Below, piece by piece: positions 9,657 to 21,898 of a stretch of DNA of 64,000 nucleotides (within the stretch, counting starts at the first letter, position 1; every line of letters begins with the position of its first letter). Origin of the DNA: Candidatus Babelota bacterium (GTDB taxonomy: Bacteria > Babelota > Babeliae > Babelales > Vermiphilaceae); NCBI GenBank assembly GCA_026388985.1, contig JAPLIS010000017.1, positions 27,641-91,640 on the forward strand, given 5' to 3'. The translations under genes were made by a program, and so were the position numbers. The notes under the pieces were generated by a model. The model ran no database searches. It was given only the letters and a program-made list of their open reading frames with translations, and was not told where the DNA came from.

Positions 9657-10868
9657 ATGCAAGCTATCAAAACATTAATTACTGTTACTGTATTAACTAT
9701 AACCCTAGGGCCCCTAGGTATGCATGGAGCGGGAGAAGGGCAAGATTCTAGAGAAGCCCAAGCTACTCCGGCGTTTACGCATAACCAGATAGAGCTAGCA
9801 AATAAACAATTACTCACCGCCTCGCTCAATGGCAACACATATGGTGTAAATCAAGCATTATCTAAAGGAGCTAACGTTAATCAAGTAAACTTGGGCTGGA
9901 CCCCATTAGACTGCGCTATTTTCAAGAATTACACTGAAATAGCAAGCATATTGCTAGCAAATGGTGCAAATGCCTCTCGTGCAAAGACGGGAGACGAACC
10001 CCCACTCTATTGGGCTATTAACCACGACAACGTTGAAATAGTAAAAAAACTTCTTGAAAAAGGCGCAAATCCTAATCATGTTGACGTAAAAGGCAACACT
10101 CCTTTAATGCAGGCAATCCTAAATAAAGGCTCGCATGAAATGATACAAATACTGATTAATGCCGATTCCTATGTGAACAATCCTAGCAATTTTAAGACAT
10201 CCCCTTTATCCATAGAAACAATCAAAGAACAACCCTCTAGCCTATTAAATACAAACCAAGTCAATACAATAAATACCTATATAGCTGAAAAAATGGTACT
10301 GATGATTTGTACTGAAAGAATATATTCAGCTATCATTAAACCATTCGGATTACTACAAATATGCGCTGGTGCTGCGTACGAAAATCAACCTGTAATACAC
10401 GAGCCTTACCCTTTAACCCCTTTATTGCTTCTATCTAGTGCAGCTGCCGCTAGCGCATATGGAATATATCATCACCCTGAGATCCCACAAAATATATACC
10501 AGACTATAAAGCGGGAAATAATCCAAGCTATAGGAAACATAACAGGCCTTAACCATCAAGTCACTAGCAATAATACCGTTGATGCACTTGAAGTAGCTAT
10601 GCCTCAACTATTATTACCTATAATCAGAGACAAAAACATCATTAACATAATAAAAAATTATGCTGGCGATTCAGATTATACAGACGAACAACGTGACCGT
10701 GCAGATATGTGGCAAGATATAGCCCAGCAAAGCTATCATAACGAAGCAATGGCTCAAAAAGAAAAGCGTATGCACCTTCTTTTGCCCATAGAAAATAAAA
10801 ATGCCCGCGAACAAGAGCTGAGACACATGCGCGAAGTGCGCTCAAAGAAATTTGATCCCAAAAAATAA
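9657..10868 (+). CDS. Exported ankyrin-repeat protein with KKFDPKK C-terminus
   Basis: The ATG at 9657 (AAGG 9 bases upstream) gives 403 residues. They begin with a signal peptide (MQAIKTLITVTVLTITLGPLG). About four ankyrin repeats follow at roughly 40-180 (WTPLDCAIFKNYTEIASILLANGA, then GNTPLMQAIL). A hydrophobic Ala/Ser-rich segment at about 255-270 may cross a membrane. Near residue 320 a motif, LLLPIIRDKNIINIIKNYA, resembles a short motif in neighbouring ankyrin proteins. The last residues, SKKFDPKK, are shared with the next gene. Ankyrin repeats bind proteins; in intracellular bacteria they are common in host-directed effectors. The target is unknown. Confidence 0.85.
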   Translation: MQAIKTLITVTVLTITLGPLGMHGAGEGQDSREAQATPAFTHNQIELANKQLLTASLNGNTYGVNQALSKGANVNQVNLGWTPLDCAIFKNYTEIASILLANGANASRAKTGDEPPLYWAINHDNVEIVKKLLEKGANPNHVDVKGNTPLMQAILNKGSHEMIQILINADSYVNNPSNFKTSPLSIETIKEQPSSLLNTNQVNTINTYIAEKMVLMICTERIYSAIIKPFGLLQICAGAAYENQPVIHEPYPLTPLLLLSSAAAASAYGIYHHPEIPQNIYQTIKREIIQAIGNITGLNHQVTSNNTVDALEVAMPQLLLPIIRDKNIINIIKNYAGDSDYTDEQRDRADMWQDIAQQSYHNEAMAQKEKRMHLLLPIENKNAREQELRHMREVRSKKFDPKK

Positions 10869-10923
10869 CACTAAACAAAGAATCTTTTTAAATCGAGTAT
10901 AAACAAATGGAAAGGGTTATACC

Positions 10924-11889
10924 ATGAAAACTATCAAAAAATTAATTATTGCCACTGCACTGATTGGCTCTTTAAGCATGCAAGACATAAAGCTTTATGC
11001 AATGAACAGTGATACAGAGGATGAGGGAAGCGAAGAAAATGCAAGTGCTGCCCAAGAAGCATTACCTACACCTAGGTTTACTACAGAAAGAATAGCCTTA
11101 GTTAGACCTTTTTTATCTCCTCCAGGCATATCAGAATTAGTATCTCTGTATGCGCAACCAACAGAAGAGGACGCCAAAGACGCCACCAAAAATATTCTTG
11201 ATGCAAGTAGAGCTGGAGATATGGGCGCTTGCATGCAAGCTCTTGAAAATGGGGCCGATGTTAACTGTGCACATCTTGCCGGCACACCACTAAGTAGAGC
11301 TATTTTTAACAACAACACCCAAATAGCACACCTACTGCTTTCTCATAATGCCGACCCAAATCAATCATCTGGGCGGAAATACACCTCTCCTCTTGAATAC
11401 GCTATAAGAAGAAACAATGCCAAAGCTGTCGAGCTATTGCTTGACCACAAGGCAGATCCTAATCAAGAAACTGGAAGGTTTGACCTAAGACCATTATGCC
11501 TGGCAATTGAAGATGTTACCACAAAAGGCCATAGTCTTGAAACCATACAAAGACTTATTTTTGCTGGAGCCGACCCTTTACTGACCAACGAAAATGACGA
11601 TAGAAGTTATATGGATATGGCGACACCAGAAATAAAAGCAGCAATTGAACAAGCGCAAGCAGCAGCACGGCGGCGGGCACAAGAACATGCGGCTGCAGCG
11701 CAAGAAGGTGCGGTCACTGAGCCATCATCAGAAACAGCTCAAGATGCAAGAACACAAACGTATAGCATTAGCTCTGCAAGAACTGAACAAATGCCTGAAC
11801 AAGTGGCGCATGTAGATGCAGCCGAACAGCCAAGTGAACGTGAGCGCATGATTGCTGCACGGCTAAAAAAATTTGATCCCAAAAAATAA
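10924..11889 (+). CDS. Exported ankyrin-repeat protein with KKFDPKK C-terminus
   Basis: This 321-residue protein has signal peptide MKTIKKLIIATALIGSLS, closely related to those of the neighbouring ankyrin proteins. An acidic linker leads to the motif RPFLSPPGISELVSLYA at about 60-76. Three or four ankyrin repeats follow at about 90-235 (AGTPLSRAIFNNNTQIAHLLLSHNA and so on). The rest is an Ala/Gln/Glu-rich, partly helical region ending in AARLKKFDPKK. It is 55 bp downstream of the previous ankyrin gene and probably cotranscribed. Its transcript is likely ended by the hairpin at 11962-12005. It is a paralogue of its neighbours, and its function beyond protein binding is unknown. Confidence 0.85.
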   Translation: MKTIKKLIIATALIGSLSMQDIKLYAMNSDTEDEGSEENASAAQEALPTPRFTTERIALVRPFLSPPGISELVSLYAQPTEEDAKDATKNILDASRAGDMGACMQALENGADVNCAHLAGTPLSRAIFNNNTQIAHLLLSHNADPNQSSGRKYTSPLEYAIRRNNAKAVELLLDHKADPNQETGRFDLRPLCLAIEDVTTKGHSLETIQRLIFAGADPLLTNENDDRSYMDMATPEIKAAIEQAQAAARRRAQEHAAAAQEGAVTEPSSETAQDARTQTYSISSARTEQMPEQVAHVDAAEQPSERERMIAARLKKFDPKK

Positions 11890-11961
11890 CAATAACTAAA
11901 AAACTGATTTACACAGGGCTTTTTAATTAATAGTTAAAAGATTCGTTAAGCAAGTAACATA

Positions 11962-12005
11962 AAGAGGGGGAGTAGATGCGAAAAATTCCACCCACTCCCC
12001 CTCTT
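11962..12005 (+). terminator. Hairpin terminator, copy 1 of a repeated element
   Basis: AAGAGGGGGAGT (11962-11973) pairs perfectly with ACTCCCCCTCTT (11994-12005). The element shares AAGTAACATAAAGAGGG and the loop GATGCGAAAAATT with a second copy at 13580-13623, and each is followed by a C-tract. Both lie after ankyrin genes. Confidence 0.65.
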
Positions 12006-12165
12006 ACTATCTCAAGCCTTACCCCCCCCTCTAGCCTCAGAAGACCGTCGCTCCTTTATTTTCAAGCTTTACACCTATCGACAAATTAATAATTTAATAT
12101 AATATTATAAGTAAAAAGCAATTCTATCTGTGCTGGTTACGCAAAAAATAAATGGAAGGTTTGCG

Positions 12166-13544: not shown

Positions 13545-13579
13545 TCAGATAAATAACAAGCAAAGAAAAAAGTAACATA

Positions 13580-13623
13580 AAGAGGGAGAGTGGATGCGAA
13601 AAATTGCATCCACTCTCCCTCTT
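13580..13623 (+). terminator. Strong hairpin terminator, copy 2 of the repeated element
   Basis: A perfect 18-bp stem pairs AAGAGGGAGAGTGGATGC (13580-13597) with its complement at 13606-13623 around the loop GAAAAATT. It is homologous to the element at 11962-12005, including the upstream AAGTAACATAA and a downstream run of C. A looser relative with G-U pairs lies at 33411-33448. Confidence 0.7.
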
Positions 13624-13703
13624 GCTATTTAGGCGATCAAGACTTTTGACTTTCCCCCCCCTTTCTAATAGAATAAATTATATACTTTCTAACCCCACAT
13701 ACG

Positions 13704-17676: not shown

Positions 17677-20046
17677 ATGGCACAATCAAACACTTTTGAT
17701 GCATTTGTTACAGAACAATTAAACCCTTCGCAACAAGAAGCTGTTCTGCATGGCCATGGGCCTATTTTGGTAATTGCTGGTGCTGGATCAGGTAAAACTC
17801 GTGTAATTACTGCACGCATCACCAATCTTATTCTAAATAATAAAATACCACCGCACGCTATCATTGCGCTTACATTTACTAACAAAGCCGCCAATGAAAT
17901 GAAAGAAAGAATTGCTCACTTTTTGGGAACTACACATAATGTGCCATTTGTTGGCACATTTCACGCCTACTGTGTACGTCTTCTTAAACAAAATAGCAAC
18001 CAGCTCAATACACCTACTTTTACTATTTTAGATAGTGATGATCAACTCAAAATGGTAAGCAGCATCTTGCATCGTGTTAACGCAGGCAAAAATATCACAC
18101 CACGCAATGCAATATATCAAATTTCTCATATTAAAAATCAACTCATAAGCCCTATCAATAGCTCCCTGTTTTCGCACCCCATTATGGAACAGGTGTATAC
18201 CGCCTATGAAAAAGAAAAAAAAGTAAGCAACTGCTTTGATTTTGATGATTTAATGCTGGAAGTGTTAAAGTTATTTAAAACAAACACCGTTTTTAAAATG
18301 CTTCACCAGGAACGAGTGCTTCATATACTGGTTGATGAATATCAAGATACCAATATAGTGCAACATGAACTGCTTAAACATATGGCTCTCAAAAATACTA
18401 CTCTTGCCGTTGACTCTTTGTGCGCTGTTGGCGACGAAGATCAATCTATTTATTCATGGCGAGGAGCTACTATTGCCAACATGCTTAACTTTAAAAAAGA
18501 TTTTACCGATACAAAAACCATTAAAATAGAGCAAAATTATCGCTCAGTTCAACCAATACTTGAAGTTGCCAACCGAGTCATTGAAAAAAATATTAATCGT
18601 AATCCTAAAAAATTATGGTCAGATAAAAAAGGCTCCGATCGTGTACGCATTGCAACCTGCATGTCTGAATATCAAGAAGGTGAATGCATTGCTCAGTGCT
18701 TAAAAGCTGCTAGCATCCAGCAAAAAAGAAGCTCTATCGCTGTTCTTTATCGCACCCATGCCCAATCCCGAGCAATTGAAGAAGCGCTGATTAAACATTC
18801 TATTCCTTATAAAATTATTGGTGGCATTCAATTTTATGAACGTAAAGAAATTAAAGATCTTCTTGCTTATGTGCGATTAATTATAAATCCATTTGACCGA
18901 ACCTCTTTTTTTAGAATTGTAAATACCCCTAGCCGTGGCCTGGGAACCAAATTTGAAGAACTTTTTTATGAATATTGGGATAATGAACCCTTTTTAACGT
19001 TTAAAGAAATTGCCCTCAAACTTATAACAGATGGTATGATTAGAGGTGCAAAACAAACAGCTCTTGAACAATTTAGTACCCTTTTTAATGGCCTTGAACC
19101 AGAAACTGCGCCAAGCACAGCCCTGGAAACACTTATAAAAAAAACAAAATATATAGAATTCCTTAAAGACTCATATGAGCCGCAAGAAGCGCAAGAACGC
19201 ATAGACAACGTACAAGAACTTTTAGATGCAATCCGCTATTTTGAAAAAAATGGTATTAATACCATAGAATTGCTTTTGCATGAAGTCGCCCTGATGCAAG
19301 AAAAAATGCACAAACAAGATGATCAGCAAGATAAAGTGCTTCTCATGAGCTTGCATGCAGCTAAGGGATTAGAATTTGATATGGTCATACTTGCCGGGCT
19401 TGAAGAAGGAATCATGCCCACCAGCCGTGCGCTGAGTAGTGATGATGCGGTTGAAGAAGAAAGACGATTATTTTATGTTGGCATAACACGCGCAAAAGAA
19501 CGCCTTTTAATTACGCATACTAAGCATCGATATACCTACGGCAAAATGGTTGACCAATTTGTTTCACGATTTTTAGATGAAATGCCAGCGCCTGTTACTC
19601 TTCGCCAAGATGCTTCTTGCTTAAATCCATTACAATTGCATGGTTTTTTTTCAGAATGGTTTGGCGTTAAAAGCCATAACTCAGTCATGACTTTTGGCCA
19701 ATCAATGCAGCATAAAGCATACACCAATCACTTGGACACCCAGGCTCAACTTACCAAAACCTATAATCGCCTTCACTCAACAGCTGAAGGCACTTCACGA
19801 GCAAAAAAAACCGTTCAGACTCGGGTACCTGATACTGCCAGCTCATCAAGTACGCAATCGCCACGCTTTTACCCCGGCACACCCGCAGTCAATTCACAAT
19901 GGCGCAAAAATCAACCAGTTAAGCACATAAAGTATGGTCTTGGGTTGGTAGAAATGGCAGAAGAAAAAGACGGCAGCACCTATGTGACGGTTAAATTCAA
20001 AGAAGGTGTTAAAAAGATTGTTTCACGATTCTTAGAGCATGTATAA
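17677..20046 (+). CDS. pcrA: UvrD/PcrA-type 3'-5' DNA helicase
   Basis: A superfamily 1A helicase of 789 residues, of the type used in nucleotide excision repair, mismatch repair and replication restart. Motif I is GAGSGKT at 35-41; then TFTNKAANEMKER, GTFHAYC, Walker B LVDEYQDTN near 218-226, GDEDQSIYSWRGA, QNYRS and VLLMSLHAAKGLEFD, with YVGITRAKERL in the C-terminal half. A low-complexity Ser/Thr linker precedes a C-terminal PcrA-like module (VKHIKYGLGLVEMAEEKDGSTYVTVKF). uvrD or pcrA are both possible names. The last 70 bp of the gene are repeated at 21790-21859, beyond the next gene, and the gene's likely terminator sits after that second copy. Confidence 0.95.
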   Translation: MAQSNTFDAFVTEQLNPSQQEAVLHGHGPILVIAGAGSGKTRVITARITNLILNNKIPPHAIIALTFTNKAANEMKERIAHFLGTTHNVPFVGTFHAYCVRLLKQNSNQLNTPTFTILDSDDQLKMVSSILHRVNAGKNITPRNAIYQISHIKNQLISPINSSLFSHPIMEQVYTAYEKEKKVSNCFDFDDLMLEVLKLFKTNTVFKMLHQERVLHILVDEYQDTNIVQHELLKHMALKNTTLAVDSLCAVGDEDQSIYSWRGATIANMLNFKKDFTDTKTIKIEQNYRSVQPILEVANRVIEKNINRNPKKLWSDKKGSDRVRIATCMSEYQEGECIAQCLKAASIQQKRSSIAVLYRTHAQSRAIEEALIKHSIPYKIIGGIQFYERKEIKDLLAYVRLIINPFDRTSFFRIVNTPSRGLGTKFEELFYEYWDNEPFLTFKEIALKLITDGMIRGAKQTALEQFSTLFNGLEPETAPSTALETLIKKTKYIEFLKDSYEPQEAQERIDNVQELLDAIRYFEKNGINTIELLLHEVALMQEKMHKQDDQQDKVLLMSLHAAKGLEFDMVILAGLEEGIMPTSRALSSDDAVEEERRLFYVGITRAKERLLITHTKHRYTYGKMVDQFVSRFLDEMPAPVTLRQDASCLNPLQLHGFFSEWFGVKSHNSVMTFGQSMQHKAYTNHLDTQAQLTKTYNRLHSTAEGTSRAKKTVQTRVPDTASSSSTQSPRFYPGTPAVNSQWRKNQPVKHIKYGLGLVEMAEEKDGSTYVTVKFKEGVKKIVSRFLEHV

Positions 20047-20049
20047 ATA
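19980..20049 (+). repeat. Direct repeat, copy 1: functional 3' end of pcrA
   Basis: Seventy bases covering the last 22 codons, the stop and a few bases beyond are repeated at 21790-21859 with five mismatches. The last 40 or so bases are identical. The two copies lie on either side of the minus-strand AAA/nuclease gene. Confidence 0.9.
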
Positions 20050-20052
20050 TGC

Positions 20053-21669
20053 CTATAGACGCTTTTCAAGCCACTCAAGTTCTAACTGCCCCTGTTGCGA
20101 TACAGTAGCAGCTGAGCTGTGAGCCCCCCGCTTAAAGTTAATATTAATACCTACTAACACAATTTCTTTATTTTTATACATATACTTTTCATGATATTTT
20201 TTCTCAATAATTTGATTTAAAGCCTCTTGAGCCGATTTATTATATTTAAACTCAAATACAATAACAGCATCTGCGCTTTCTAAGACAAGGTCAGATTCGC
20301 CATAACGAGTGGCCTCTTCTGACTTTGGCCTCATGCTAAGCATGTCAAACATAAAGTGAAACAACGAATGATAATATGCTTCACGAGCGATATGCAAATT
20401 ATGGGGAATACTTGCAAAAAGCGCTTTTACCGCATTACAAAATTGTTCGAAATCTTTACTGACTAATGCGTTTCTCATCCGCGAAAGTTCATCTTCTATT
20501 AACTCAGGAGTCGCATAGGCAAAAGCCTGCATTAAATAATCCTTAAATGATTCACGTACTTCTCGATTAGGATAGTCTAAAGTAAACACTTCAGTTTGCG
20601 CATCATAATCAACAATTGTTAGATAGCCGGTCTGAAAAAGCAGAGCAAAAAGAGGAATATTGCTTATATCTATTGCATTTAAACTTTTATTTGAAACTTT
20701 AATTACCTGGCGAAGTTCAAGGCTTATTCCCTTTAGCCGCAAAAGTGCAATCAAAAAACCTGGGCTTCCCGTATTAAACCAATAATTAGAAAGTCGTTTA
20801 TTATCTATAGATGCAACAACCGAAAGGGGACTGTACATTTGTGGCTTTTGCATATCATCACAAAACCTATATCCATCATACCATATCTTCATGCTATCAA
20901 GTGTCTCCTGCCTTGTTTTACCCAAATGGAGAGCGAGATCATCTATCCGTGGTAAAAAATAAGTCACGAGTTCTGCATAGGTATACCCAAAAAGTTCAGC
21001 CGCAACAGGGTCAAAGGTTAGTTCTTTAAGGTTATTAAGCCCCGAAAAAACCGAGGTTCTTGCAAACTTACTTACGCCAGTTATAAAAATAGCCCGCCAG
21101 CTTGATTCCAAGGACTTGACGGTAGTATAAAAACTATTAAGTATTTTTCTGTTTTCTTCTGCCAACGATACATTATCCACATGATCAACTAAGGGCTTAT
21201 CATATTCATCAACAAGCAGTACAACTTTGGCTCTTTTTTCTAATTGTTCAACAAGCTCATTTAACATACTTCCCGGACTTATTGCTTCCAATTTAGCACA
21301 ATCATACTGCCGTGCTATCTTCTGCAAAGCAAGACATAAATTATGCTTAAACTCTTGTGCAGTGGCATTTTCAATACCGCCAAAATCTAAATGTATAACT
21401 GGATGCTTTCGCCAATCATATGAACTATTTTTCCCTATCCAATATTCAGCAAATAATTCTTTTTTACCTGCAAAAATCTCTTTAAGCGTTGAAATAAAAA
21501 GCGATTTACCAAAACGACGGGGCCGAGATACAAAATAAAAATGTTTTTTATCTAAAGCTGTTATGAGATCATATATAATCTTAGTTTTATCAACATAGAT
21601 ACGACCTTCTGTTACAAAATGTTCAAAGATACTGCAATTAAGCCCCAATTGTTTAGGTTTATTATTCAT
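20053..21669 (-). CDS. AAA-ATPase / PD-(D/E)XK nuclease-like protein (DUF1703 type)
   Basis: This 538-residue protein matches the AAA-ATPase-like family with a C-terminal PD-(D/E)XK domain. The start, FEHFVTEGRIYVDKTKII, is typical. A modified Walker A, RPRRFGKS, is at 49-56 and Walker B VDEYDKPL at 153-160. A nuclease-like core shows Asp460 and then Glu473-Phe-Lys475. All key residues are present. Members occur in many copies in some host-associated bacteria; their function is not established, and a mobile or conflict-related role has been proposed. It runs opposite to pcrA and lies neatly between two copies of the pcrA 3' end, which suggests insertion as a cassette. Confidence 0.88.
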   Translation of the reverse strand: MNNKPKQLGLNCSIFEHFVTEGRIYVDKTKIIYDLITALDKKHFYFVSRPRRFGKSLFISTLKEIFAGKKELFAEYWIGKNSSYDWRKHPVIHLDFGGIENATAQEFKHNLCLALQKIARQYDCAKLEAISPGSMLNELVEQLEKRAKVVLLVDEYDKPLVDHVDNVSLAEENRKILNSFYTTVKSLESSWRAIFITGVSKFARTSVFSGLNNLKELTFDPVAAELFGYTYAELVTYFLPRIDDLALHLGKTRQETLDSMKIWYDGYRFCDDMQKPQMYSPLSVVASIDNKRLSNYWFNTGSPGFLIALLRLKGISLELRQVIKVSNKSLNAIDISNIPLFALLFQTGYLTIVDYDAQTEVFTLDYPNREVRESFKDYLMQAFAYATPELIEDELSRMRNALVSKDFEQFCNAVKALFASIPHNLHIAREAYYHSLFHFMFDMLSMRPKSEEATRYGESDLVLESADAVIVFEFKYNKSAQEALNQIIEKKYHEKYMYKNKEIVLVGININFKRGAHSSAATVSQQGQLELEWLEKRL

Positions 21670-21789
21670 ACATAATGCCCTTTTTTATAGTAACTCTATT
21701 TAATAGCTACATTGTCTCATAATAAGCCTACCAAAAATAGCAATAACTTACACCGTCACAAAGACGTTGCGAAAAAAAATGGCTGTTAT

Positions 21790-21859
21790 CTATGCGCCAG
21801 TTACATTCAAAGAGGGTGTTAAAAAGATTGTTTCACGATTCTTAGAGCATGTATAAATA
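21790..21859 (+). repeat. Direct repeat, copy 2: orphan 3' end of pcrA
   Basis: This matches 19980-20049 at 65 of 70 positions and still includes the TAA stop context (GAGCATGTATAAATA). It is not attached to any reading frame. The mismatches cluster in the part furthest from the stop, as expected if that part is no longer selected. Confidence 0.9.
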
Positions 21860-21898
21860 AACAAGCTGCCCATGCTTTATGCTCACAGACAGCTTGTT
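21860..21898 (+). terminator. Hairpin directly after the orphan pcrA 3' end
   Basis: AACAAGCTG (21860-21868) pairs with CAGCTTGTT (21890-21898). It starts right after the repeat, where a terminator for pcrA would be expected, whereas no hairpin follows the real pcrA stop at 20046. This suggests the second copy marks the original gene end. Confidence 0.55.

What the first reader, a model, noticed from the sequence alone, without database searches (positions are those of the whole stretch)
19980..21898. AAA/PD-(D/E)XK gene inserted between two copies of the pcrA 3' end
The last 70 bp of pcrA recur 1,810 bp downstream with five mismatches. The only gene between the copies is the DUF1703-type AAA/nuclease, on the opposite strand. 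The likely pcrA terminator follows the second copy and is missing after the first. This is what insertion at a gene's 3' end with restoration of that end would leave, yet no integrase or transposase is visible. The family may itself be mobile, or move by a passenger-like route.
Basis: partly seen in the sequence, partly recalled or inferred. Interest (0 to 1): 0.75.

Follow-up and report, generated by a model that had tools for sequence, protein, structure and literature searches.

The report
Nuclease gene between copied gene ends
In a small bacterial genome, a single gene for a predicted ATPase-nuclease sits between two near-identical copies of the end of a helicase gene, the likely scar of an insertion that copied its landing site; about a quarter of the toxin-antitoxin loci sampled in related and unrelated bacteria lie between copies of the same kind, which suggests a shared way of moving that would need no transposase.

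Summary
The last 70 bp of pcrA recur 1,810 bp downstream (65/70 identical). Only an AAA-ATPase/PD-(D/E)XK gene (PF09820+PF08011) lies between the copies. No recombinase gene or attC-like pair is there. In 29 relatives' pcrA loci there is one 3' end and no such gene beside it.

The reading is partly supported. The closest known process is "insertion with long target duplication", described for restriction-modification genes. In this order (Candidatus Babeliales), 8 of 86 ATPase/nuclease ORFs lie between direct repeats within 450 bp, against 11 of 491 other ORFs. Toxin-antitoxin loci show the same scar: HicA 8/30, MNT 7/30, MNT in other phyla 8/30, against 0/89 control loci. One genome has an ATPase/nuclease gene between two copies of a maf-like 3' end; a same-genus genome has that end once and no such gene there. 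One target took two different modules in a row (ATPase, HicBA).

So the route looks generic and shared with addiction modules, not special to this family or to gene 3' ends (8 of 21 flanked loci). None of nine other own-genome copies tested shows it. How the cut is made, and what the protein does, stay inferred.

The parts
17677..20046 (+). pcrA (UvrD/PcrA-type helicase), intact, target gene
   Evidence: PF00580, PF13361
19980..20049 (+). copy 1 of the duplicated target: last 67 bases of pcrA with its stop codon, plus 3
   Evidence: score against null
20053..21669 (-). insert: AAA-ATPase/PD-(D/E)XK (DUF1703-type) gene, 538 aa, Walker A, Walker B and SD..EFK motifs present
20132..21701 (-). stretch alignable at DNA level with the own-genome paralogues (upstream edge at 21701; no long common leader beyond it)
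21790..21859 (+). copy 2 of the duplicated target; all five differences lie in its first 25 nt
21860..21898 (+). inverted repeat after copy 2 (9-bp stem), possible old pcrA terminator, not confirmed
   Evidence: (sequence)

Best explanation
The AAA-ATPase/PD-(D/E)XK gene lies alone between two copies of the pcrA 3' end, and it was most likely put there by a transposase-free insertion with long target duplication. In this reading incoming DNA carrying the gene would have been joined into a staggered break of about 70 bp at the end of pcrA; filling in both sides copied the target, so pcrA stayed whole (copy 1) and the old downstream sequence now follows copy 2. The same scar around HicA, MNT-HEPN and other ATPase/nuclease genes suggests a generic capture route rather than a recombinase of this gene. 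Direct repeats should let such an insert be looped out again, so the inserts that persist are likely those whose loss is costly; the protein is therefore predicted to be a selfish or defence-type module. Shown: repeats, contents, rates against controls, one same-genus empty site, serial use of one target, purifying selection. Inferred: the staggered break, the outside source, the addiction or defence role.
For: Repeat far above chance. No second pcrA end and no such gene in 29 relatives' pcrA loci. 8 of 86 family ORFs flanked within 450 bp against 11 of 491 other ORFs, p = 0.003. Empty site in the same genus for L348. Serial inserts with different cargo at one target: L153 and L352. Toxin-antitoxin loci 23 of 90 against 0 of 89 controls. 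Repeats of different loci share no core beyond a 12-nt word in one pair, and attC-like pairs occur in 1 of 32. dN/dS 0.08-0.17 among seven own copies. The repeats differ by 5/70 while the three nearest of nine own paralogues differ at 64-70% of synonymous sites, so the insert is not a recent copy of any of those nine.
Against: Nine other own-genome copies tested have no such repeats. Two of the eight flanked family ORFs are weak (L328, L351), and most family and toxin-antitoxin loci show no repeat. No same-genus genome of the window's organism is held, so the empty pcrA site itself is not shown. The five differences cluster in the first 25 of 70 nt (p = 0.004), which a simple fresh duplication does not predict; later gene conversion or allelic exchange is needed. 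The control ORFs include flanked tandem paralogues, so the scar alone is not proof for any single locus. Non-independence: one HicA locus is the L153 site, and the 8 other-phyla hits come from 6 genomes.
Confidence: 0.7

Rival explanations
1. An integrase-type element: the pcrA end is an attachment site, and a recombinase acting in trans (tyrosine integrase, or a PDDEXK_2/Rpn-type enzyme) inserted the gene and left attL and attR.
For: Identical core with one diverged arm in copy 2 is what attL/attR would look like. A PDDEXK_2 gene exists in the own genome and is the target of an MNT-HEPN insert. Serial insertion at one target (L153) resembles tandem integration.
Against: No recombinase gene between the repeats. 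Targets differ between loci and share no core; repeat length varies from 24 to 223 bp in the Babeliales loci. Toxin-antitoxin modules with no integrase inside show the same scar.
Confidence: 0.12
2. Transfer from a relative by recombination: foreign DNA with the gene and a diverged pcrA end recombined on one side by homology and on the other side by illegitimate joining.
For: The one-sided divergence of copy 2. No recent source copy among the nine own paralogues compared.
Against: It only moves an existing insertion between relatives and does not explain how the first one arose, nor why different modules sit in duplicated targets of many kinds.
Confidence: 0.1
3. Ordinary segmental or tandem gene duplication, with the gene merely caught between the copies.
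For: Some flanked control ORFs in the window are tandem paralogues sharing ends or signal-peptide starts; L343 looks like this among the family copies.
Against: At pcrA, the maf-like gene, the AlaX-like gene and the FkbM-type gene only a gene end is duplicated. Same-genus empty site. Rates differ between toxin-antitoxin and control loci.
Confidence: 0.05
4. The protein itself makes the staggered cut with its PD-(D/E)XK domain and so moves its own gene.
For: ATPase and nuclease motifs are intact in the window's copy and the family is under purifying selection.
Against: Modules that encode no DNA nuclease (HicBA, MNT-HEPN) carry the same scar at a higher rate, so the domain is not needed in cis. 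Other own copies show no scar.
Confidence: 0.08

Closest known systems
Insertion with long target duplication of restriction-modification genes (Nobusato et al. 2000; Furuta et al. 2010; seen only through passages of PMC3874152 and PMC3031569)
   Same: Bare gene module between direct repeats of the order of 100 bp, variable in length, no transposase
   Different: Cargo is a one-gene AAA/PD-(D/E)XK module or a toxin-antitoxin pair; one target can take different modules in series
DUF1703 / AAA-ATPase_like + PDDEXK_9 family, expanded in Cardinium cCpun (passages of PMC6387759) and defined in PMC1913061 (passages)
   Same: Same two domains, many diverged paralogues in one small genome, function unknown
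   Different: In the passages seen, expansion is put down to transfer, duplication and recombination; no flanking target duplication is mentioned
Microcystis toxin-antitoxin module between 152-bp direct repeats beside MaOC1 (passages of PMC7935541)
   Same: Module fenced by long direct repeats just after a gene
   Different: A single locus; there the repeats are identical and hold a 16-bp inverted repeat
Islands that integrate at gene 3' ends with an integrase (from general knowledge)
   Same: Gene end duplicated so the target gene stays whole
   Different: No integrase, no common attachment core, variable repeat length

Membership tests
Insertion with long target duplication | Module between direct repeats of tens to hundreds of bp | tested here: met
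   70 bp at pcrA; 24-223 bp at other Babeliales loci
Insertion with long target duplication | Relative with the target once and no module | tested here: inconclusive
   Met for L348 against G083 of the same genus. At pcrA only distant relatives, one end each in 29 of 29 loci
Insertion with long target duplication | No transposase or integrase in the insert | tested here: met
   Only the ATPase/nuclease gene lies between the pcrA copies
Insertion with long target duplication | Cargo is a restriction-modification system | tested here: not met
   Cargo is PF09820+PF08011; hence filed as a variant, not as the same thing
Integron cassette | attC-type site in the repeat | tested here: not met
   No attC-like pair in either pcrA copy; 1 of 32 repeats overall has one; copy folds like shuffled DNA
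Integrase-type island | Integrase gene and shared attachment core | tested here: not met
   No such gene between the repeats; no shared core. A recombinase elsewhere in the genome was not searched for
Insertion sequence / transposon | Terminal inverted repeats and a short target duplication | tested here: not met
   No inverted pair at the insert ends; the duplication is 70 bp
DUF1703-type AAA/PD-(D/E)XK protein | Both Pfam domains over their cut-offs, with active-site motifs | tested here: met
   PF09820 177 bits, PF08011 52 bits; motifs
Toxin-antitoxin module | Toxin gene with a partner antitoxin gene | tested here: not met
   Only one gene lies between the repeats
Toxin-antitoxin module | Toxic on expression or on loss of the partner | not testable with these tools
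   Needs a growth assay
Known anti-phage defence system | Clear match to a defence model | tested here: not met
   PADLOC: only weak hits at E 0.005-0.01 for two of four family proteins, none for the other two

The most novel reading that the evidence does not exclude
A transposase-free insertion route that copies some 30-220 bp of its landing site is a main way by which addiction modules (toxin-antitoxin pairs as well as restriction-modification genes) and one-gene AAA/PD-(D/E)XK modules enter bacterial chromosomes across phyla, and the AAA/PD-(D/E)XK protein is itself a one-gene addiction or defence module kept by the cost of losing it.
Probability: 0.3. Interest if true: 0.85.

Novelty: new variant of a known kind. 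Interest (0 to 1): 0.66.

Why it matters
Toxin-antitoxin modules are described as exceptionally mobile (PMC2701414, passages), yet how bare two-gene modules move is not settled. Here about a quarter of sampled HicA and MNT loci (23 of 90) carry a long flanking duplication, against none of 89 control loci. The scar would mark insertions, give their ends and relative age, and could be searched for to find unknown selfish modules. It also suggests that the widespread DUF1703 genes of unknown function belong with them.

Tried and rejected
Rejected: chance (score 116 against a null maximum of 37); attachment-site or integron reading; recent copying from one of nine own-genome paralogues; a rule that only gene 3' ends are targets (8 of 21, plus window; L343 left out as tandem paralogues). 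Structure prediction was not used. In one search the looser rule (repeats within 2.5 kb) gave 15 of 80, inflated by repeated gene families (for example L160 of the own genome, L176, L344), so the 450-bp rule is the one I use. In one search, 4 of 32 repeats were dropped as second copies of a locus before 378 pairs were compared. In one search my motif pattern for the nuclease matched 5 of 7 own copies. Scripts failed and were repeated; L320 had no paralogue to compare and L336 gave no row.

Full report
What is there. pcrA (17677-20046, +) is intact. Its last 67 bases, stop codon included, plus 3 more (19980-20049) recur at 21790-21859, 65 of 70 identical, 1,810 bp apart. At E <= 0.001 these are the only two matches in the 1.18 Mb genome. 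Between them lies one gene on the other strand, 20053-21669, with AAA-ATPase_like and PDDEXK_9 domains and Walker A, Walker B and SD..EFK motifs. The local alignment across the gene scores 116; 702 mismatched pairings of flanks from 27 family copies reach at most 37. After copy 2 comes an inverted repeat (21860-21898) that folds moderately (z -1.6) but is not scored as a terminator.

Which organism. I call the order Babeliales on that basis.

Relatives at pcrA. pcrA was found in 34 of 36 genomes, the own one included. The 29 relatives' pcrA loci that were fetched were tested: no ATPase/nuclease gene in the fetched flanks (tblastn, E < 1e-3), and no second pcrA end downstream (0 of 29). None is of the same genus, so the exact empty site is not available.

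Other copies of the family. The own genome gives 17 matches, several partial. Of 10 own copies tested with both flanks, only the pcrA copy has flanking repeats within 800 bp; a looser 2.5-kb rule also picks a 69% repeat around L160, which I take as a repeated gene family. Over the order, 34 of 101 genomes hold the family. Of 86 ATPase/nuclease ORFs in fetched regions, 8 lie between direct repeats within 450 bp, against 11 of 491 other ORFs (p = 0.003). Two of the eight are weak (L328, L351). Of the 11 others, four are toxin-antitoxin or defence-like genes (HicB, the partner of an MNT gene, a YhcG-type nuclease, an AAA_35-like ATPase). Three, in the window, look like neighbouring paralogues with shared ends or signal-peptide starts. 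The remaining four (L175, L176, L178, L349) I did not work out.

Empty site. In G084 (L348) the gene lies between two copies (53 bp, 94%) of the 3' end of a Maf-like gene. In the same-genus genome G083 the fetched locus matches the Maf-like gene once, with one such end, and nothing matches the ATPase/nuclease gene at that place. The sequence just beyond the repeat is too diverged to align; homology resumes farther on.

Serial insertions. In G008 (L153) the end of an FkbM-type methyltransferase gene is followed by the ATPase gene, a copy of that end, a HicBA pair, and a third copy. The right-most copy runs on in the methyltransferase frame to another stop codon (my reading), which suggests that it keeps the old downstream sequence. 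In L352 a DUF1703-type gene and an AAA_35-like gene lie between three copies of one target. In L154 whole copies of a small gene alternate with an MNT-HEPN pair and the ATPase gene, and a Gp49/HTH pair follows.

Toxin-antitoxin loci. Direct repeats on both sides: MNT (PF01909) 7 of 30 and HicA (PF07927) 8 of 30 in the order; one of the HicA loci is the L153 site. In the own genome an MNT-HEPN pair lies between two 169-bp copies (97%) that include the end of a PDDEXK_2 gene. In 30 genomes of other phyla, 19 had MNT matches; of 30 loci 8 are flanked, from 6 genomes (Fimbriimonadaceae, Cyclobacterium, Scalindua, a Bacteroidetes MAG, Melioribacter, Stygiobacter). Controls: ABC transporters 0 of 30, pcrA 0 of 29, ABC transporters in 19 of the other-phyla genomes 0 of 30 (two loci have repeats, neither spans the gene). 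Together 23 of 90 against 0 of 89, p = 5e-8. The controls are mostly conserved genes, not matched accessory genes. The other-phyla loci were tested for repeats only; their genes were not annotated.

Nature of the repeats. They are 24 to 223 bp long at the Babeliales loci looked at closely and up to 283 bp in other phyla. They overlap the 3' end of a clear gene in 8 of 21 loci (my reading plus the window, L343 left out); most others are intergenic or in short ORFs. Repeats of different loci share little: the longest common words are 12 and 11 nt in one pair each of 378, against 10 in shuffles; attC-like pairs occur in 1 of 32. Of 12 repeats folded, two (L320, L352) fold better than shuffles, the rest do not. 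ATPase inserts are 1,665-1,867 bp, little more than the gene; toxin-antitoxin inserts are 542-1,079 bp in most cases, while L199, L201 and L214 are longer and hold further ORFs.

Selection and age. Seven own-genome paralogues give dN/dS of 0.08-0.17, so the protein is being kept. The pcrA repeats differ by 5/70, while the three nearest of nine own paralogues differ at 64-70% of synonymous sites. The insert is thus not a recent copy of any of those nine; arrival from outside is likely. The five differences lie in the first 25 nt (p = 0.004), so copy 2 was probably partly overwritten later by gene conversion or allelic exchange (inferred).

Mechanism. The pattern matches 'insertion with long target duplication', known for restriction-modification genes (passages of PMC3874152 and PMC3031569). 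The primary papers (Nobusato 2000, Furuta 2010) were not read; the second is not held. I infer a staggered break or replicative capture, since modules without a DNA nuclease share the scar. Because direct repeats invite loss by recombination, survival of the inserts suggests that losing them is costly. That would fit toxin-antitoxin pairs and predicts the same of the ATPase/nuclease, whose role is not known (passages of PMC6387759 and PMC1913061).

Literature. PMC2701414 (passages) describes MNT-HEPN insertions between close relatives, and the term 'direct repeat' does not occur in its main text. One Microcystis module between 152-bp direct repeats is described (PMC7935541, passages). A link of PDDEXK_2 transposases with cif genes is reported (PMC12445526, passages). 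In the listings I saw no title or abstract reporting long target duplications around toxin-antitoxin or DUF1703 genes as a class; only part of the matching papers was listed in several of these, and subscription journals are mostly not covered.

Noticed in passing
L159:12691-13876 (own genome, contig C2): An MNT-HEPN toxin-antitoxin pair lies between two 169-bp copies (97%) that include the 3' end of a PDDEXK_2 gene.
   Followed up: yes
L388, L392, L395, L400, L402, L403, L405, L408: MNT loci of other phyla also lie between long direct repeats (8 of 30 tested); in L388 and L403 the insert is only about 640 bp.
   Followed up: partly
L352:4161-6198: An AAA_35-like ATPase gene sits between two copies of the same target that flanks a DUF1703-type gene.
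   Followed up: partly
L180:5312-6652: A YhcG-type PD-(D/E)XK nuclease gene lies between 58-bp direct repeats (84%).
   Followed up: no
window 10844-10882 / 11865-11903 and 11952-12010 / 13570-13628: Further direct repeats in the window: shared 3' ends of two neighbouring ankyrin-like genes, and a 59-bp pair (90%) around two more ORFs.
   Followed up: no
window 20053-20131: The pcrA-site copy has an extra stretch of about 12-15 residues near its C-terminus that its own-genome paralogues lack.
   Followed up: no
L163:3371-4504 (own genome, contig C4): A 351-aa transposase-like ORF (label from memory) between 30-bp inverted repeats: an ordinary IS-like element, unlike the insert studied here.
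   Followed up: no
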